In this document: piece by piece, positions 41,298-48,741 of the stretch
Layout of the letters: each line of letters starts with the position of its first letter
Position numbering within the stretch: position 1 is the stretch's first letter
Assembly (NCBI RefSeq): GCF_900104355.1
Contig: NZ_FNIY01000001.1
Location: 248,001 to 312,000 of the forward strand
Reading direction: 5' to 3'
Source: Phyllobacterium sp. OV277
Lineage (GTDB): Bacteria; Pseudomonadota; Alphaproteobacteria; Rhizobiales; Rhizobiaceae
Length of the DNA stretch: 64,000 nucleotides
The notes under the pieces: generated by a model
The model's database searches: none
The model's input: the letters and a program-made list of their open reading frames with translations, nothing else
Told to the model about the DNA's origin: nothing
Position numbers and translations under genes: made by a program

Positions 41298-41789
41298 TCA
41301 GATAGCAAAACTAAATTCATGCAGATCGATCCTGCACTGGAAACAATTATTCCTGGCCGAACGCATATGCACATAAGCCACCTCGTCACGTCTCAGAAGT
41401 TCCGCTGCCCGCACTGCAATATTGTCGGTCGCAATCACGCCGCCTGTGCCATAGACAATCCGGTCCTGACGGGAATAACCGCGCAGGATGTAGTCACTGT
41501 TCTCGCGAAACATCTCGGGCATGTCTGATATTTCATCATAGCGCCCGCATTCTTCCGCATGCAGGAAAATCGGACCAGTTTCCGCGTAGGGTTGCGGTGC
41601 CGGGAACGGCCGGTGCGAAAGAACAAGATATTTATCACCAGCTTTCACATTCTGCAGGCAGTGACGGCAAGGTACGCCGTCACCATCTGAGGTATGTGTT
41701 TCCGGCGTCTGGCCGTTGGCGTCGACACCACCGGCCTGATAGTGGCGGGCGAGTGTTGTTGTCATTGCAGTAAACTGGATCGTGCTCAT
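41298..41789 (-). CDS. DUF1203 family protein
   Basis: The start ATG at 41789 has AAGGAG upstream. The 163-residue product carries the DUF1203 pattern GDGVPCRHCLQ...YLVLSHRPF, PYAETGPIFLHAEECGRY and a C-terminal CFQC pair. Its four or more Cys and several His suggest metal binding, but the function is unknown. It is convergent with ald and follows the SDR gene on the same strand after 76 bases. Confidence 0.87.
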   Translation of the reverse strand: MSTIQFTAMTTTLARHYQAGGVDANGQTPETHTSDGDGVPCRHCLQNVKAGDKYLVLSHRPFPAPQPYAETGPIFLHAEECGRYDEISDMPEMFRENSDYILRGYSRQDRIVYGTGGVIATDNIAVRAAELLRRDEVAYVHMRSARNNCFQCRIDLHEFSFAI

Positions 41790-41865
41790 GGGAATCTCCT
41801 TCGTTACATCGAAGAAAACACCCAAACACAGGAGCAAACCACCCGATTCCTGCTGATCTCGATAA

Positions 41866-42714
41866 TCACCAGCTACCGTCAGGACCATCGGTGTTCAGCG
41901 ACAACTGGCGCCAGAGCTCAAGCTCGGCCTGCATCGTGGCAAGCTTGGTTGCAGCGTTGTTGACAGCCATGGCACCCGCAGCAAATCGCATTGGCGGCTT
42001 AGCTTCTTTGGACAGGAGCACCATCGCATCGGCAAGTTTCTCAGGATCGCCAGGCTGCGAACCATTGCGGGCTTCAAAACTGGCGCGCATGCTTTCCCGC
42101 CTGACGTCATAATCAGCGATCGCATTCTCATCCCCGATGCGTAGCGAATCTCCAGTGAGGAAATCCGTGCGAAAAGGTCCTGGCTCGACAATTGTCACGA
42201 AAATCCCGAAGGGTGCGATCTCCAGAGCAAGCGATTCCGAAAAGCCCTCAAGCGCAAATTTGCTTGCACTGTAGAGCGAACCAAATTCGCCGCCGCGAAG
42301 CCCGGCAATCGAGGAGATGTTGAAGATGCGGCCTTTGCGGGCAACGCGCATGACCGGCAGTACTGCCCAGGTGACATTGAATACCCCATGCACATTTGTC
42401 GCGAACTGTGTGTTGACCGTTTCCGCCGTGTTTTCTTCGAAGAAGCCGAGCTGACCATAACCGGCATTGTTCACCAGCACGTCGATTGTACCAAAACGCG
42501 ATACTGCCGCCTGCACGGCACTTTGTGCCTGATCTGCATTGGTGACATCCAGTTCAATCGCCAATAATTGCTCACTATCCGGTCCGAGCGCTTCCGTTAC
42601 AGCGCTTTTCTTGCGACCTGTGGCAACCACGCGATCTCCGGCCCGGATCGCCGCCTTTGCGATCTCAACGCCCAGTCCACGCGAAGCACCTGTAATAAAC
42701 CATGTTTTCTGCAT
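41866..42714 (-). CDS. Short-chain dehydrogenase/reductase
   Basis: The 282-residue protein is a classical SDR: TGASRGLG cofactor motif, NNAGYG, Ser in SSIAGLRGG, the YSASK catalytic Tyr/Lys motif and PGPFRTDF. It reduces or oxidises a small carbonyl or alcohol with NAD(P). The Arg residues after the first strand favour NADP. It diverges from the AraC-type gene, probably its regulator. Confidence 0.92.
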   Translation of the reverse strand: MQKTWFITGASRGLGVEIAKAAIRAGDRVVATGRKKSAVTEALGPDSEQLLAIELDVTNADQAQSAVQAAVSRFGTIDVLVNNAGYGQLGFFEENTAETVNTQFATNVHGVFNVTWAVLPVMRVARKGRIFNISSIAGLRGGEFGSLYSASKFALEGFSESLALEIAPFGIFVTIVEPGPFRTDFLTGDSLRIGDENAIADYDVRRESMRASFEARNGSQPGDPEKLADAMVLLSKEAKPPMRFAAGAMAVNNAATKLATMQAELELWRQLSLNTDGPDGSW

Positions 42715-42865: not shown

Positions 42866-43765
42866 ATGGAACAGCTTGCCGAAATTCGATCCCTCATTGC
42901 GCGCCATATCGGAACTGACGGTCAGGCCACACTGCTTCCGGGAGTCAGACTACTGTGTTCAACCGTTCCGACAGAGCCGATCAACGGCTTTTACGAGCCT
43001 GCCTTCGGGCTCGTCGCTCAAGGCGCGAAACGGACATTGGTCGGCAACAGGCTGTTTGAATATGGTGCCGGTCAATATCTTATCGTCTCCCTCGACCTCC
43101 CGATTGCTGGCCACGTCATTGAGGCAAGCGCCGAGCAGCCCTATCTTGCATTCCGGTTAAGTCTCAACCCGTCGGTGATCGCATCACTTTTATTGGAGGC
43201 AACAACTGGCCATCAGAAAAACGGCGAGGCTATCGGGTTAGCAGTCAGTGTCGCTCCAACCGAGTTGCTTGACGCAGTCACGCGGCTTTTACGATTGCTT
43301 GATAAGCCAGATGACCTCGCAGTCCTGTGGCCCATGCTGGAGAGGGAAATACATTGGCGTCTTCTCAATGGTGAACAGGCAAGTTCGGTGCGCCAGATCG
43401 GCCTCGCGGACAGCCGTCTTTCGCAGATCAACCGCGCCATCCGCTGGATTCGTGCCCATTATGCGGAGATTTTCCGGATTGAAGATTTAGCGGATGTAGC
43501 AGGAATGAGCGTCTCCGCCTTTCACCGCCATTTCAAAGCAATCACAGCGATGAGCCCATTGCAGTATCAAAAGCAAATTCGATTGCAGCAGGCGCGCGCA
43601 TGGCTGATAGCGGAATCCCGTGACGTTGCCTCTGTCGGCTTTGCGGTGGGCTACGACAGTCCATCGCAATTCAGTCGCGAATATCGGCGGCTCTTCGGCG
43701 TTCCACCCGGCAAAGATGTTACGCGGATAAGATCAATTCCTATCCCAGAACCGGCACTCGCCTAA
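42866..43765 (+). CDS. AraC-family transcriptional regulator
   Basis: The 299-residue protein has an N-terminal AraC-type cupin-like domain (EPAFGLVAQGAKRTLVGNRLFEYGAGQYLIVSLDLP) and a C-terminal double helix-turn-helix (RIEDLADVAGMSVSAFHRHFKAITAMSPLQYQKQ, then VASVGFAVGYDSPSQFSREYRRLFG). This AraC_N class often controls a divergent SDR gene, as here. The inducer is unknown. Confidence 0.93.
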   Translation: MEQLAEIRSLIARHIGTDGQATLLPGVRLLCSTVPTEPINGFYEPAFGLVAQGAKRTLVGNRLFEYGAGQYLIVSLDLPIAGHVIEASAEQPYLAFRLSLNPSVIASLLLEATTGHQKNGEAIGLAVSVAPTELLDAVTRLLRLLDKPDDLAVLWPMLEREIHWRLLNGEQASSVRQIGLADSRLSQINRAIRWIRAHYAEIFRIEDLADVAGMSVSAFHRHFKAITAMSPLQYQKQIRLQQARAWLIAESRDVASVGFAVGYDSPSQFSREYRRLFGVPPGKDVTRIRSIPIPEPALA

Positions 43766-43865: not shown

Positions 43866-44309
43866 CTATTTCGTTACAGTAATGTTAAACGAATAATACT
43901 CGTAATATTGGTCATAACCCGCAAAATTGCTGGAAAGCGTTACCGTGTCGGTGCCGACGAAGCCCGGTGCAGGCGTATATGTTGCAGCCACAGCGATAAT
44001 ACGCCGGGAATGACATTTATTGGGCGTTGGTCCCGGTCCCTTCGGCATGAGCCCTGAAACATTGCTGAAACGAACAGTTCCATGAGACGGTGCCGATGAA
44101 ACCTTTACCTTGGGCGCGCGGCTTATCGAGCAGTCAGGGTTCTGTCCAACAACATTCGTTAAACCCACTGATTTTCCAGCTGATGTTTTAACTGATCGAA
44201 TACTTGAACCCTCCGTGACCTTTCCCGGGACAGTTGGCGTCGAACATCCGGAAACCACTAGACCTGATGATATCAACACCAAACCCGCAAACGCTTTACC
44301 AACTTTCAT
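43866..44309 (-). CDS. Ig-like-repeat lipoprotein, array copy 1
   Basis: The ATG at 44309, preceded by GAGGAA, gives 147 residues; a TTG further upstream is less likely. A lipobox (LVVSGC) marks a lipoprotein, followed by a short Ser/Thr linker, then an Ig-like repeat with NPDCS, SHGTVRFS, NKCHSRR and PAPGFVGTDTV. Two Cys beyond the lipid Cys may form a disulfide. It is the most distal and, with copy 4, shares the PAPGFVGTDT form. Function unknown. Confidence 0.75.
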   Translation of the reverse strand: MKVGKAFAGLVLISSGLVVSGCSTPTVPGKVTEGSSIRSVKTSAGKSVGLTNVVGQNPDCSISRAPKVKVSSAPSHGTVRFSNVSGLMPKGPGPTPNKCHSRRIIAVAATYTPAPGFVGTDTVTLSSNFAGYDQYYEYYSFNITVTK

Positions 44310-44371
44310 GTTGTCATTCCTCAATGATTGAAGCCCAGTCCGTATTGGCGACGGAGAACGTCGCGATCAAT

Positions 44372-44809
44372 CTAATTCGTAACGTTGATAGTGAAGTTCA
44401 CATATGAATAGAAATCACTGCCCGCGGTCTTGGACGAGATCGTCACGGAGTCCTTGCCAACAAAACCTGATGTTGACGTGTAGCTCACATAAATCTTGGA
44501 AACGTTCTGCGAATTGCATTTGTGCCGGCGTTCACCTTCCCTGAATGAAGGGCGGGAACTGCCACGGGAGAAATCAATCGTTCCGTGCGAGGGTCCAGAA
44601 ACGGCCTTCAATTCAGGAGGAACACGACTGGAACAATCGTCATTCACTTTGTAAAAGCCTGAAAGTTGGGTTTTCACGCCCGATTTTACCGAAGCGGTCT
44701 CAGAGCCAGAGCCAGTTTTTGTCGCAGTTGGATCAGCAGTTTGACATGCGGACATCAATAGGCCCGATGACACCAATACAAGGCCAGTCAATACTGTCGT
44801 AAATTTCAT
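44372..44809 (-). CDS. Ig-like-repeat lipoprotein, array copy 2
   Basis: The 145-residue product has a lipobox (LLMSAC) and the same layout: NDDCS, SGPSHGTIDFSRGS, HKCNSQN, SGFVGKDSV, and ends in TINVTN. The first 80 coding bases are identical to copy 3 (44730-44809 versus 45234-45313). GGGGGA precedes the ATG. Together with copy 3 it is the most recent duplicate of the array. Confidence 0.78.
   Translation of the reverse strand: MKFTTVLTGLVLVSSGLLMSACQTADPTATKTGSGSETASVKSGVKTQLSGFYKVNDDCSSRVPPELKAVSGPSHGTIDFSRGSSRPSFREGERRHKCNSQNVSKIYVSYTSTSGFVGKDSVTISSKTAGSDFYSYVNFTINVTN
44730..44809 (-). repeat. 80-base perfect repeat, copy A (5' end of array copy 2)
   Basis: The sequence is identical to 45234-45313. 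It encodes the signal peptide and lipobox of lipoprotein copies 2 and 3. Confidence 0.9.
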
Positions 44810-44875
44810 ATCGTATCCCCCGATAAGTGATATGTCTCGCTAGTACAGCGACCAAAATTCGCTGCAGCTTTATTG

Positions 44876-45313
44876 TCATTTTGTAACGTTGATTTCGAAT
44901 TTGACGTATGAATAGAAATCACTGCCGGTGGTCTTGGACGAAACAGTAACGACATCCTTACCCACAAAACCCGCTGCCGACGTATATTCCACGAAGATCT
45001 TCGAAATGTTGTGTGAATTGCATTTGTATCTACGTTCGCCCTGCGCAAATTTGGGGCGGCCACTTCCACGGGAAAAGTCAATTGTTCCGTGTGAAGGCCC
45101 AGATACCACTTTCAGTTGGGGAGGTATCTGGCTCGAACAGTCGTCATTCACTCCAGCAAAGCTTAAAAGCGTGGCTTTCTCCCCAGATTTGGCCGTCGCC
45201 TTTTCAGTACTTGATCCAACTTTTGCTACAGTCGGATCAGCAGTTTGACATGCGGACATCAATAGGCCCGATGACACCAATACAAGGCCAGTCAATACTG
45301 TCGTAAATTTCAT
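44876..45313 (-). CDS. Ig-like-repeat lipoprotein, array copy 3
   Basis: The ATG at 45313 matches the start of copy 2; an upstream ATG in frame at 45331 is less likely. The 145-residue product has lipobox LLMSAC, NDDCS, SGPSHGTIDFSRGS, YKCNSHN and GFVGKDVV. It is about as close to copy 2 as two recent duplicates can be, differing mostly in the linker. The next copy starts just upstream. Confidence 0.78.
   Translation of the reverse strand: MKFTTVLTGLVLVSSGLLMSACQTADPTVAKVGSSTEKATAKSGEKATLLSFAGVNDDCSSQIPPQLKVVSGPSHGTIDFSRGSGRPKFAQGERRYKCNSHNISKIFVEYTSAAGFVGKDVVTVSSKTTGSDFYSYVKFEINVTK
45234..45313 (-). repeat. 80-base perfect repeat, copy B (5' end of array copy 3)
   Basis: Identical to 44730-44809. 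The identity stops at the linker after the lipobox, where the two genes diverge. Confidence 0.9.
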
Positions 45314-45332
45314 TTTTATCCCCAAGATCATT

Positions 45333-45773
45333 CTAATTCGTTACGGTGATGCGGAAGCTGTAATAGTCAAAAGACCGGTTATCTCCCATGATCGTGCTCG
45401 AAATATCGATCGTGTCCGTACCGACGAAACCCGGCGCAGGCGTGTACACAGGTGCGACCGCGGAAGCACGGCGCGAATTGCATTTATGCAATGCGTGACC
45501 AGCGCCAAATGCCGGGAAAATGGACGAGCGCGTGATCTTCACTGTGCCATGCTGAGGACCGGAAACCACCTTAAGCGTCGGATGCCACGTCGTTGAGCAG
45601 TCGGGGTTAATTTTATAAACATTGGTCAACAGGACTTGCTGCCCCGCTTTGGTCGAAACCGCATAAACGGTAGACCCTGTTCTCGTAATGGATTGATCTG
45701 ATGTTTGACACGCGGAAACCAACAGGCCCGATGATACCAACACCAAGCCAATCAATGCTGTGTTCAACTTCAT
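45333..45773 (-). CDS. Ig-like-repeat lipoprotein, array copy 4
   Basis: The 146-residue product is the most upstream copy. Lipobox LLVSAC, then NPDCS, SGPQHGTVKITRSS, HKCNSRR and PAPGFVGTDTI, ending FRITVTN. CGGGGGG lies ahead of the ATG, as before copy 2. It may carry the promoter for the array, since the gaps to copies 3, 2 and 1 are short. Confidence 0.76.
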   Translation of the reverse strand: MKLNTALIGLVLVSSGLLVSACQTSDQSITRTGSTVYAVSTKAGQQVLLTNVYKINPDCSTTWHPTLKVVSGPQHGTVKITRSSIFPAFGAGHALHKCNSRRASAVAPVYTPAPGFVGTDTIDISSTIMGDNRSFDYYSFRITVTN

Positions 45774-45926
45774 ATGTTACCCCCCGATAAGTAATACACC
45801 CTATGTAAATGGATATTTATCGGACCGCCAGAAGACAAACAGCAAATAAAAAGGTTTTTCTACGGAAAGAATACAATATGGAAGCGGCGGGCGGCATGGG
45901 CTGCGCCGCTTCCCTCACCAAACAGA

Positions 45927-46487
45927 TCAGCGGATGAAATCGGTGACCCGGCGGATCGTAACGCGCCGGTTGCGCCAGTCTTCATACTCAGTCTGAACAA
46001 GCAAATATTCCTCGCCATAACCAACTGTCTCGAGCGCACGCGGTGGAACACCGAAATAACGCACGAGATCGCGCTTGAGCGATTCAGCTCGCTGCTCGGA
46101 AAGAATCTGATTTGACTCGTACGATCCTACCGCATCCGTATGCCCCTCGATCAGGAAAACCTCGTTGCGGCGCCGCCGTCTCAGAACGCGGTTCAGCCCA
46201 TCCGCAATACGCTCTACCTTGTCCTGCTCCGAACGAGGAATAGCCGCTGAACCAAAGGCAAAGTTGATCGACTGTATATCAATCGACGGTGCATAACGGC
46301 GCAGTTCGGGACGGCGCTTGAATTCACGCACAGTCACACGGCGTTCGTCAGGCAAACGCATGCGCGGAGCGGCTTCAAGGCGCCGCTCTATCTCATCAGC
46401 ACTGGGCATCTGACGCGATTGCGCAAAAGCAGGTGCAGCAACGGTTGCTGCAGCGAGACCAAACAACAGGCCGCGACGATTGATCAT
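45927..46487 (-). CDS. OmpA-family C-terminal domain protein
   Basis: The ATG at 46487 has AAGGAGAG upstream. The 186-residue protein has an exported N-terminus (NRRGLLFGLAAATVAAPAFAQ, which has a twin-arginine pattern) and an OmpA-like peptidoglycan-binding domain: INFAFGSAAIPRSEQDKVERIADGL, EGHTDAVGSYESNQILSEQRAESL and VGYGEEYLL. No beta-barrel is present, so it is a periplasmic peptidoglycan-binding protein. The lipoprotein array lies downstream on the same strand. Confidence 0.88.
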   Translation of the reverse strand: MINRRGLLFGLAAATVAAPAFAQSRQMPSADEIERRLEAAPRMRLPDERRVTVREFKRRPELRRYAPSIDIQSINFAFGSAAIPRSEQDKVERIADGLNRVLRRRRRNEVFLIEGHTDAVGSYESNQILSEQRAESLKRDLVRYFGVPPRALETVGYGEEYLLVQTEYEDWRNRRVTIRRVTDFIR

Positions 46488-46601
46488 AGACGTTCTCTCC
46501 TTCCAGACAGGCAGTTTCCACTGCATTGATTGTTGAAGAAGAAATAGCGCAGCAAAAATGAAGCGGGCATGAACGCCCCACTCCACAACCGAAGATTGTA
46601 G

Positions 46602-47138
46602 TTACAACCAAGCCTCTATTTCCGCATCAGCAAATCCAACAGGATTGAACCCCATCCGCTGATACATTTGCAGGGCGCGCGGACTGTCGAGCGTATTGGT
46701 TTCGATAATCACCTTTTCCGGGCTGCTCATCCACGCGGCAGAAATGGCTTCGTTCAGGAAAAATTTGGCAAGTCCCCGCCCCTGAAACTCCGGCACAAGC
46801 CCAAAATAAAGGATTTCCGCGACACCCGGTTCCTCATTGAGCACCAGTTCGAAGAACCCGGCTGGCGAGCCATCCACATACAATACATGAATGGCAACGC
46901 AATCCCGGTGAATGATCGCGGCCAAGGCTTCGTCGCTAAGGTTCCTGTGCACGAACCAATGATGCGGTTTGCCGACCTGCTCATAGAGAAACCGGTAAAA
47001 TGGCAGGGAAATATTCGTTGCCGACATGATCGCCAGTTTGAAGCTGGCTGGAGTTGCAACGGAATAAACAGGCCGGTTGGTCATCTCAAGCAGCGTTACA
47101 CGCGTCTTTAAAATCTTTGGCTTGTTTGCCTCGGCCAT
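46602..47138 (-). CDS. GNAT-family N-acetyltransferase, last gene of the cysK operon
   Basis: The ATG at 47138 overlaps the sseA stop (TAATG), so translation is coupled. The 178-residue product has the GNAT fold with CoA loop VPEFQGRGLAKFFLNEAI and IIETNTLDSPRALQMYQRMGF. The acceptor is not known; the operon context suggests an amino acid or thiol-related amine. An alternative start at 47195 lies inside sseA. Confidence 0.87.
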   Translation of the reverse strand: MAEANKPKILKTRVTLLEMTNRPVYSVATPASFKLAIMSATNISLPFYRFLYEQVGKPHHWFVHRNLSDEALAAIIHRDCVAIHVLYVDGSPAGFFELVLNEEPGVAEILYFGLVPEFQGRGLAKFFLNEAISAAWMSSPEKVIIETNTLDSPRALQMYQRMGFNPVGFADAEIEAWL

Positions 47139-47998
47139 TATTCTGCTTCGCCTGTCGCAACAGGCGTTTCCTTGTACGCGCCCCACTCGCTCCACGATCC
47201 GTCATAGAGGATATTATCCTTGTGGCCGAGAGATTCGAGCGCAAGGGTAATTACGGCAGCAGTGATGCCCGAACCACAACTCGTGACGATGGGTTGGGAC
47301 AGGTCAATACCGGCATCGTCAAACATCTGACGCAAACCCGGCAAATCCTTCAGATAGCCTTTGTCGGCCAATGTCGAAGACGGCACATTGCGCGCGCCGG
47401 GCATATGACCGGAACGAAGGCCCTCGCGTGGTTCCGGGTCCTTGCCGACAAAGCGTCCTGCCGCCCGCGCATCGGCGACCTGACGCGATCCACTGTCGAC
47501 GATCTCTCGCATATCGGCGAAGCTTGCCACCTTGTCCGCCTGAAACTTTGGTACAAAGGCCGACGGCGCAATCTTGGTTACCTCATCGGTCACCGGCCTG
47601 CCGTCATTCTTCCAATTGTCGAAACCGCCATCCAGCACAAACACATTCTTTGCGCCCATGGTGCGCAACATCCACCAGACACGCGGCGATGTGTTCATGC
47701 CGGGGCCGTCATAGACAACAATCGTATCATCATTCGTGATGCCCATGCTGCTGACTGCCGCGGCGAAAGTTTCAGGCTTGGGCAATGTATGCGGCAAAGA
47801 CGAATTCGGATCGGATAGTTTTTCGTGATCGAAAAACACGGCCCCCGGAATATGAGCGGCCTTGTATTCACCTTCGGCATCACGATTGAGAAAGGGAAAA
47901 TACCAGGAGGCATCGAGAATGCTTAAGCCCGGTTGACCCAGCCGTTCCTGCAACCAGTCGGGGGAAACCACAAACGCGCTCTTGTCTGCCACGGTCAT
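47138..47998 (-). CDS. sseA: 3-mercaptopyruvate sulfurtransferase
   Basis: The 286-residue protein holds two rhodanese domains. The active-site loop is CGSGITAAV in the second domain, the hexapeptide form typical of mercaptopyruvate sulfurtransferase rather than thiosulfate rhodanese. It moves sulfur from mercaptopyruvate (from cysteine) to thiols or cyanide. The ATG overlaps the alaX stop (ATGA). Its placement after cysK fits cysteine turnover. Confidence 0.93.
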   Translation of the reverse strand: MTVADKSAFVVSPDWLQERLGQPGLSILDASWYFPFLNRDAEGEYKAAHIPGAVFFDHEKLSDPNSSLPHTLPKPETFAAAVSSMGITNDDTIVVYDGPGMNTSPRVWWMLRTMGAKNVFVLDGGFDNWKNDGRPVTDEVTKIAPSAFVPKFQADKVASFADMREIVDSGSRQVADARAAGRFVGKDPEPREGLRSGHMPGARNVPSSTLADKGYLKDLPGLRQMFDDAGIDLSQPIVTSCGSGITAAVITLALESLGHKDNILYDGSWSEWGAYKETPVATGEAE

Positions 47999-48741
47999 TC
48001 TCCTTCCGGCAAGGCGCCGAAGCGGATACGCAACCGCCGGTTTTCCTTGCCCTTCTTTTCTATTTTTCCAATGTGGATCGCACCAACTTCGCCTGTTGTA
48101 GCCGTATGGGTTCCGCCGCACGGCTGCGAATCGATGGAAGCATCCTTACCGATACAGACAAGACGGATACGGCCTGTCCCACTGGGCGGACGCACATTCT
48201 TTGACTTGATAAGACCGGGATTGGCCGCAAGTTCTTCGTCCGTAATCCAGCGCGTGAAAATCGGATGGTTGGCTTTGACCAGTTCCATCAGCTTTTCGGT
48301 CACGCTTTCCTTGGTCACACCAGCATCCGGCCAATCAAAGTCAACGCGGCTGTCATCTTCGGCAACCGAAGCGCCAGTGATTGGAAACGGGCAGACAACA
48401 CTCAGCAAATGACAGGCCGCATGCATACGCATCAGCTTGTAGCGCCGGTCCCAGTCAATGCGCAGGGTCAGCTTTTCGCCGATAGCAGGCACCTGTTGAT
48501 CGGGTGCGGGCACATGGATAATTTCTTCCTTGGTCTCACCCGTAACGGTCGCAGCGATGACAATTATGCTGCCATCATCGCGGACAAAAACACCGGTATC
48601 GCCGGGCTGACCGCCTGATGTCGCATAAAAAATCGTCCGGTCGGTGAGAATACCACCACGCTCGTTGATCGCAAGAACCGTGGCTTCCGTCTCTTTCAGA
48701 TAGGAATCGTCGCGGAAAAGAATTGTCGTGTCATATGCCAT
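47995..48741 (-). CDS. alaX: Alanyl-tRNA editing protein (AlaX type)
   Basis: The 248-residue free-standing editing domain clears mischarged seryl- or glycyl-tRNA-Ala. It shows FYATSGGQPGDTGVF at the start, the zinc-binding HAACH and the C-terminal QPCGGTHTATTGEVG (CxxxH). The ATG at 48741 lies five bases after the cysK stop, and its stop overlaps sseA. Linkage to cysK is notable, since serine is the precursor of cysteine and serine is also the main misactivated substrate of AlaRS. Confidence 0.92.
   Translation of the reverse strand: MAYDTTILFRDDSYLKETEATVLAINERGGILTDRTIFYATSGGQPGDTGVFVRDDGSIIVIAATVTGETKEEIIHVPAPDQQVPAIGEKLTLRIDWDRRYKLMRMHAACHLLSVVCPFPITGASVAEDDSRVDFDWPDAGVTKESVTEKLMELVKANHPIFTRWITDEELAANPGLIKSKNVRPPSGTGRIRLVCIGKDASIDSQPCGGTHTATTGEVGAIHIGKIEKKGKENRRLRIRFGALPEGE

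What the first reader, a model, noticed from the sequence alone, without database searches (positions are those of the whole stretch)
43866..45773. Tandem array of four paralogous Ig-repeat lipoproteins
Four genes in a row on one strand encode 145-147-residue lipoproteins with the same plan: lipobox, short variable Ser/Thr linker, N(P/D)DCS, HGT(I/V), KC(N/H)S and GFVG(T/K)D. Two extra Cys are kept in all copies, so a disulfide-bonded single domain is likely. Copies 2 and 3 are recent duplicates while 1 and 4 are older. Local amplification of small surface lipoproteins suggests selection for dosage or for variation, for example adhesion or immune evasion. I know of no named family for this layout.
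Basis: partly seen in the sequence, partly recalled or inferred. Interest (0 to 1): 0.7.

Follow-up and report, generated by a model that had tools for sequence, protein, structure and literature searches.

The report
Tandem polymorphic Ig-like lipoprotein genes
A plant-associated bacterium carries four side-by-side genes for small lipid-anchored, Ig-like proteins at a spot where its relatives have one, none or a very different version; the pattern fits old variants that come, go and are probably swapped behind a shared signal sequence better than a recent copying of one gene.

Summary
The four genes are real: 145-147 aa, one strand, lipobox, shared Cys pair. They belong to an unnamed family, almost confined to the order, of secreted one-domain proteins related to the bacterial Ig domain Big_9 but below Pfam's cut-off. 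C59 and C98 are invariant in 26 of 26 aligned members; AlphaFold gives copies 2 and 4 the same Ig-like strand order. At this site, of 20 genus genomes, one has four copies, 14 have one (two decayed), 5 none. 'Recent local amplification' fails: one clade for the four is rejected (p-AU 7e-5), and copies 2 and 3 differ at 61% of silent sites in the mature part although their first 80 nt are identical. Against the closest genome, 94% DNA identity ends just past the lipobox of copy 4; neighbours differ at 17% of silent sites, the mature part at 77%. Best reading: a birth-and-death locus of stand-alone Ig-like binders, with mature parts exchanged through signal-sequence DNA, resembling staphylococcal tandem immunity lipoproteins in behaviour, not homology. 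Ligand and function remain untested.

The parts
45333..45773 (-). c4, first gene of the array, lipoprotein of 146 aa
   Evidence: AlphaFold model
44876..45313 (-). c3, lipoprotein of 145 aa
44372..44809 (-). c2, lipoprotein of 145 aa
   Evidence: AlphaFold model
43866..44309 (-). c1, last gene of the array, lipoprotein of 147 aa (one search also lists a TTG start 15 nt further up)
45234..45313 (-). first 80 nt of c3 (signal sequence, lipobox), identical to the first 80 nt of c2
44730..44809 (-). first 80 nt of c2, identical to the first 80 nt of c3
45695..45773 (-). first 79 nt of c4, up to which the flank identity with genome G012 runs and then stops
45774..45796 (-). leader just before c4 with a G-rich ribosome-binding site; similar stretch before c2 (44810-44832)
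   Evidence: ribosome-binding role inferred
46602..47195 (-). GNAT acetyltransferase gene, upstream edge of the site in the genus (an OmpA-family gene lies between it and c4 here and in G012)
41298..41888 (-). DUF1203 gene, downstream edge of the site in the genus
42866..43765 (+). AraC-family regulator gene, convergent with the array; variable content of the site
41866..42714 (-). SDR oxidoreductase gene; variable content of the site

Best explanation
The locus is a fixed chromosomal site, between a GNAT acetyltransferase gene and a DUF1203 gene, where genes for small lipoproteins are gained, lost and exchanged. Each protein is one Big_9-like Ig domain behind a lipid anchor and a short linker, very probably held by a disulfide between C59 and C98, and probably works alone as a binder. 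The leader and signal-sequence DNA serves as a homology arm: recombination there keeps ribosome-binding site and export signal and attaches a different, long-diverged mature domain. The window's genome holds four such variants at once. Shown here: gene content, similarity to Big_9, two 5' breakpoints, saturated silent divergence of mature parts beside little-diverged neighbours, absence or decay in other species. Inferred: the disulfide, outer-membrane location, binding as the activity, and that diversity of the ligand is what is selected. My best guess for the ligand is a variable foreign protein that acts on the envelope.
For: c4 against G012: neighbours pS 0.17, signal part 0.12, mature part 0.77; flank identity of 94.4% ends at nt 79; break at nt 71, 69/71 against 193/367, 0 of 2000 permutations. 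c2 against c3: 80/80 then 253/355, 0 of 2000. G002 against G010 and G014: whole gene replaced between flanks of 86-92% identity. One clade rejected for c1-c4. Vertical pairs G010-G014 and G007-G009 show that the gene's silent clock is normal. Copy number at the site 4, 1 or 0 in 20 genomes. Small tandem sets recur in the order. No constant partner gene at the loci looked at.
Against: No binding or location data. The 5' break is seen in two comparisons only; in G010-G014 the break runs the other way (5' part more diverged, 1 of 2000) and in G007-G009 there is none. c1 does not share the homogenised signal sequence (44-47 of 66 nt). No near-identical mature domain was found in two different flank backgrounds, which would prove exchange. 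Variability is not concentrated in loops. Two R. etli strains show 98% identity through flanks and genes, with no swap. An ancestral larger array with differential loss explains much of the same data.
Confidence: 0.5

Rival explanations
1. Orphan immunity array, a more specific form of the best explanation: each lipoprotein neutralises an envelope-acting toxin or lytic enzyme of competitors, and the array stores protection against several variants, as TilA/DUF576 lipoproteins do in S. aureus.
For: Variable copy number, non-identical tandem copies and shuffling through a conserved stretch match the description of TilA (PMC10730906, passages). The genome encodes type VI genes (VipB family, 6 of 20 genus genomes), and none of those six has the uniform gene type of seven other genomes.
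Against: No toxin or secretion gene beside the genes at the loci looked at. The type VI association was noticed after the fact and the six genomes are mostly close kin. Two of the six (G016, G011) lack the gene at this site.
Confidence: 0.2
2. Birth and death only: the ancestor of the clade had a larger old array, and species kept different members; the G012 gene arose by a deletion between two signal sequences. No exchange between strains and no selection for diversity is needed; the protein is a dispensable envelope component.
For: 5 of 20 genomes lack it at the site and two more are decayed; unequal crossing-over explains the c4-G012 break; vertical pairs are under purifying selection; R. 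etli Mim1 has an N-terminally shortened copy beside an intact one.
Against: All four mature parts of the window are at pS 0.77-0.79 from that of G012, so the ancestor would have needed at least five old copies; the whole-gene replacement in G002 adds another old type. Not excluded.
Confidence: 0.3
3. Surface adhesins or antigens, varied to fit or escape the plant host.
For: Big_9 repeats occur in a calcium-dependent biofilm adhesin (PMC12153261, passages); lipid anchor plus linker would suit display.
Against: One small domain, purifying selection in vertical pairs, no surface evidence, variability not gathered on loops.
Confidence: 0.1
4. Recent local amplification of one gene for dosage or variation.
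For: Four tandem copies here, one in the closest genome; c2 and c3 are nearest relatives within the genome (84/59).
Against: One clade for c1-c4 rejected, p-AU 7.3e-5; mature pS 0.61-0.86 between copies against 0.17 to the sister genome for neighbours.
Confidence: 0.03
5. Chagasin-like (I42) protease inhibitors.
For: Best solved structure in the fold search is amebosin (6cjz, E 1.1e-4, TM 0.49 by target length), with EhICP2 and chagasin in the list; that amebosin belongs to the chagasin family is recalled.
Against: TM-scores in the listed rows reach 0.51 at most and cadherins, RET and phage collar proteins score alike; no Pfam inhibitor family matched.
Confidence: 0.04

Closest known systems
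Big_9 bacterial Ig domain (Pfam PF17963)
   Same: Profile-profile match over the C-terminal half (prob 92%, E 5.7e-7); P-HGT, YTP and GF-G-D motifs; Ig-like strand order
   Different: Below the Pfam cut-off; one domain instead of repeats; an extra stretch carrying an invariant Cys; mostly in small secreted proteins
Staphylococcal tandem lipoproteins, TilA/Lpl/Csa (DUF576)
   Same: Tandem, non-identical lipoprotein genes of variable copy number, shuffled through a conserved DNA stretch (paper passages)
   Different: No DUF576 match in Pfam; the shared stretch is the 5' signal sequence, not the middle of the gene; no toxin gene nearby
Rhizobium etli p42e pair RHE_RS26265/RHE_RS26260 and other 'hypothetical proteins' of Rhizobiaceae
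   Same: Same family by profile, same Cys pair and length, also in tandem
   Different: One of the two lacks a lipobox; no sign of swapping between two strains, 98% identity throughout
Chagasin-family inhibitors
   Same: Small Ig-like fold among the best structural matches
   Different: Weak TM-scores, no family match, lipid anchor and Cys pair

Membership tests
Big_9 (PF17963) | score above the curated cut-off of 23.6 bits | tested here: not met
   14.9 and 15.9 bits for c1 and c4, none for c2 and c3; 5 of 24 family members match at E up to 1, best 4.6e-4
Big_9 (PF17963) | profile similarity to known Big_9 domains | tested here: met
   hhalign against six Big_9 domains of the own genome: prob 92%, E 5.7e-7, 56 columns; one of the six, L116, is weak
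Big_9 (PF17963) | Ig-like beta sandwich | tested here: inconclusive
   confident all-beta models of c4 and c2, generic Ig or cadherin matches of TM up to 0.51
TilA/DUF576 tandem lipoproteins | sequence family DUF576 | tested here: not met
   no such match among Pfam results
TilA/DUF576 tandem lipoproteins | tandem lipoproteins of variable copy number | tested here: met
   4, 1 or 0 copies at one site in 20 genomes
TilA/DUF576 tandem lipoproteins | shuffling through a conserved DNA stretch | tested here: inconclusive
   5' breaks in c2-c3 and c4-G012, not in G007-G009, reversed in G010-G014
TilA/DUF576 tandem lipoproteins | cognate toxin gene adjacent | tested here: not met
   none beside the array nor at other loci looked at
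TilA/DUF576 tandem lipoproteins | neutralises a toxin | not testable with these tools
   needs a bench test
Chagasin (I42) inhibitors | Pfam family match | tested here: not met
   no match
Chagasin (I42) inhibitors | same fold | tested here: inconclusive
   amebosin E 1.1e-4, TM 0.49 by target
Bacterial lipoprotein | signal sequence with lipobox Cys | tested here: met
   VSGC, MSAC, MSAC, VSAC at residues 19-22, judged by eye; no lipidation data

The most novel reading that the evidence does not exclude
A conserved chromosomal site across Phyllobacterium holds polymorphic, disulfide-stapled Ig-like lipoproteins that act as stand-alone recognition or immunity factors, and the signal-peptide DNA itself is the recombination handle by which mature Ig domains are swapped between array members and between strains.
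Probability: 0.22. Interest if true: 0.65.

Novelty: new variant of a known kind. Interest (0 to 1): 0.4.

Why it matters
It points out an unnamed family of one-domain Ig-like proteins, widespread in one bacterial order and marked by an invariant Cys pair. It also gives a clear case in which neighbouring genes tick normally (pS 0.17) while one small gene beside them is saturated (pS 0.77), with the break at the lipobox. If exchange is right, these loci are a small and testable system for how plant-associated Gram-negative bacteria diversify an envelope binder, and a counterpart to the staphylococcal tandem lipoproteins. If it is only birth and death, it still corrects the reading as a recent duplication.

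Tried and rejected
Recent tandem amplification: rejected by the tree (p-AU 7.3e-5) and by silent divergence. Positive selection as the sole cause of divergence: silent sites are saturated too, and vertical pairs are conserved. Phage origin: copy 3 matched no phage record, PHROGs gave weak short matches only, the viral fold library gave generic matches, best E 2.9e-6 with TM 0.42. Signal-sequence cassette shared with other genes of the genome: beyond c4, c2 and c3 the next best was E 0.04 over about 30 nt. A solved relative by sequence: none at E up to 10. Neighbours at other loci: no recurrent partner in what I looked at (47 ORFs listed at 12 loci, of which 10 were scanned; five annotated plasmid stretches; one search had no annotation), apart from a GMC oxidoreductase gene beside the pairs of both G271 and G366. 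Promoter and terminator scan: no more than shuffles give. Composition: GC of the four genes 0.47-0.52 against 0.55-0.58 for five neighbours, but single-copy relatives in the genus range from 0.44 to 0.58, so this was not used as evidence of foreign origin. Papers: PMC10730906 (12 of 16 places shown) and PMC12153261 were seen as passages only, the rest only in search listings. In those listings I saw nothing on this family; one search listed 15 of 51 papers and 15 of 81, so this is no proof that it is unpublished. Rows dropped: G004 and G018 (decayed) and the five non-syntenic genes were left out of the gene comparison and mature-domain tree; one search printed 45 of 120 pairs; both trees used the simpler LG+G4 model.

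Full report
What is there. Four same-strand genes (c4, c3, c2, c1 in reading order) between 45773 and 43866 encode lipoproteins of 145-147 aa. Gaps of 19, 66 and 62 nt suggest one transcript; a promoter and terminator scan gave no more than shuffles. The own genome (5.33 Mb, 26 contigs) shows no further copy at E up to 1 with copy 3 or 0.01 with the four-row profile.

What the protein is. No Pfam or NCBIfam cut-off is reached by any of the four; PHROGs and PADLOC gave weak short matches only. Big_9 comes closest, below its cut-off, and a profile-profile comparison with six Big_9 domains of a 2235-aa frame in the same genome gives prob 92%, E 5.7e-7 over 56 columns. AlphaFold predicts the same order of strands for c4 (mean pLDDT 83.7) and c2 (82.4), with block means of 79-98 from residue 31 on and low confidence before it; one strand at 46-53 is continuous in c2 and broken in c4. 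Foldseek finds generic Ig-like or cadherin-like matches, best E 1.1e-4, TM at most 0.51 in the 50 rows listed. In an alignment of 24 members C59, G76, C98, Y110, G118 and D120 (c4 numbering) are invariant; in one of 26 members D58, C59, P73, G76, C98, Y110, G118 and D120. C59 and C98 (C60 and C99 in c1) are the only mature Cys in the four copies, so a disulfide is likely but was not measured. Some distant members lack a lipobox: the Cys pair, not the lipid, marks the family.

Where it occurs. With the 24-member profile at E up to 1e-4, matches were found in 67 of 394 genomes of the same family, 60 of 297 drawn from the order, 6 of 289 drawn from the class (three of them in the same order, own included) and 25 of 299 drawn from the phylum (the draws overlap). 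The seven genomes outside the class match only in open frames of 837-5523 aa, that is, inside large proteins. Small tandem sets recur. In one search, besides the window's genome, G127 has four and G271, G366, G163 and G333 two each (sequences checked). In one search, by coordinates only, eight more: G485 (two pairs), G508, G661, G627, G454, G677, G689 (second piece a fragment) and G565. Among plasmids, 15 records match c4 and 27 match a Rhizobium relative; R. etli p42e has a tandem pair annotated as hypothetical proteins.

The site in the genus. Of 20 genus genomes 17 have a match. At the syntenic site the window's genome has four copies, 14 have one and 5 have none: G016, G008, G017 and G001 with the neighbours in place, G011 with the DUF1203 gene not found. 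Two of the 14 are decayed: in G004 the signal sequence is missing, in G018 the frame is broken. Five genomes have a more distant relative elsewhere: G013, G016, G008, G014 and, broken, G002. The genes beside the array vary as well: G016 has AraC and SDR genes but no lipoprotein gene, G013 has the SDR, G012 has neither except a 34-nt AraC remnant.

Age. Silent (pS) and replacement (pN) differences were computed after Nei and Gojobori. Vertical pairs set the scale: G010-G014 neighbours pS 0.20, mature part pS 0.19, pN 0.01; G007-G009 0.29, 0.35, 0.06. Against these, c4-G012 has neighbours 0.17, signal part 0.12, mature part 0.77; c2-c3 has signal part 0 and mature part 0.61; c2-G013 and c3-G013 have 0.74 and 0.71 against neighbours 0.37; G002 against G014 and G010 has 0.70 and 0.72 against 0.21 and 0.23. 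So mature domains that now sit side by side, or at the same site in sister species, separated long before those species did. The flank tree (15 genomes, 2029 columns) joins G000 with G012 at 100/100; the mature-domain tree (16 genes, 124 columns) joins c1 with G012 (100/99) and c2/c3 with G013 (100/98). One clade for c1-c4 is rejected (p-AU 7.3e-5), and so is one for G002, G010 and G014 (5.7e-4). These groups were tested after the tree had been seen, which makes the p-values optimistic.

Breakpoints. DNA identity of 94.4% between G012 and the window runs from 1.5 kb upstream to nt 79 of the gene, just past the lipobox, and stops. A maximum chi-square scan puts the break at nt 71 (69/71 against 193/367, 0 of 2000 permutations); for c2-c3 it is at nt 80 (80/80 against 253/355, 0 of 2000). 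Two other pairs do not show this: G007-G009 has no break (763 of 2000) and in G010-G014 the 5' part is the more diverged one (107/129 against 294/306, 1 of 2000). In G002 against G010 and G014 the whole gene is replaced, with about 96 nt before it and about 70 nt after it.

How it most likely works. Shown: similarity to an Ig domain, signal sequence with lipobox, variable gene content at a fixed site, two 5' breakpoints. Inferred: the domain binds a partner by itself, since no gene was seen to travel with it at the loci looked at, and variety is useful. The residue after the lipobox Cys is Ser or Gln, not Asp, which by the E. coli rule (recalled) suggests the outer membrane. The nearest precedent in behaviour is the staphylococcal lipoprotein TilA, described as immunity to the lipase TslA, with variable copy number and shuffling through a conserved stretch of about 130 nt (PMC10730906, passages). 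There is no homology to it and no toxin gene here. Type VI genes occur in 6 of 20 genus genomes including this one, and none of the six has the uniform gene type shared by seven others; the six are mostly close kin and the link was noticed afterwards, so it weighs little. Against a diversified binding face, variable residues are spread over the whole domain.

Verdict. The site holds an old, diverse set of small Ig-like lipoproteins that come and go and probably swap mature parts. Differential loss from a larger ancestral array remains a serious rival.

Noticed in passing
window 45927-46586 (-): OmpA-family gene with a twin-arginine-like signal between the GNAT gene and c4. Among the genus loci examined it was found only here and in G012.
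   Followed up: partly
L044 8640-8673: In the closest genome, G012, a 34-nt remnant of the 3' part of the AraC gene marks a deletion of AraC and SDR.
   Followed up: partly
L159 4414-6291: Genome G016 keeps the AraC and SDR genes at the site but has no lipoprotein gene there.
   Followed up: partly
window 47138-48121 (-): The sulfurtransferase ORF is probably called too long: family matches begin at residue 49, and 3 of 5 relatives have a TGA within the aligned stretch, whose place I did not look up.
   Followed up: no
G000 contig C22 259322-263902: A 2235-aa open frame with six Big_9 domains above or near the cut-off elsewhere in the genome.
   Followed up: partly
L096 247-5574 (-): A 1776-aa protein with DUF4082, Calx-beta and Glucose/Sorbosone dehydrogenase domains lies near a lipoprotein relative.
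   Followed up: no
G013 contig C2 591621-592536: One of the VipB-like genes of G013 is interrupted: a TGA in one piece and a second overlapping piece.
   Followed up: no
L120 3589-3888 against L118 4830-5351: In R. etli Mim1 the first gene of the pair lacks its N-terminal part, while the second is intact.
   Followed up: partly
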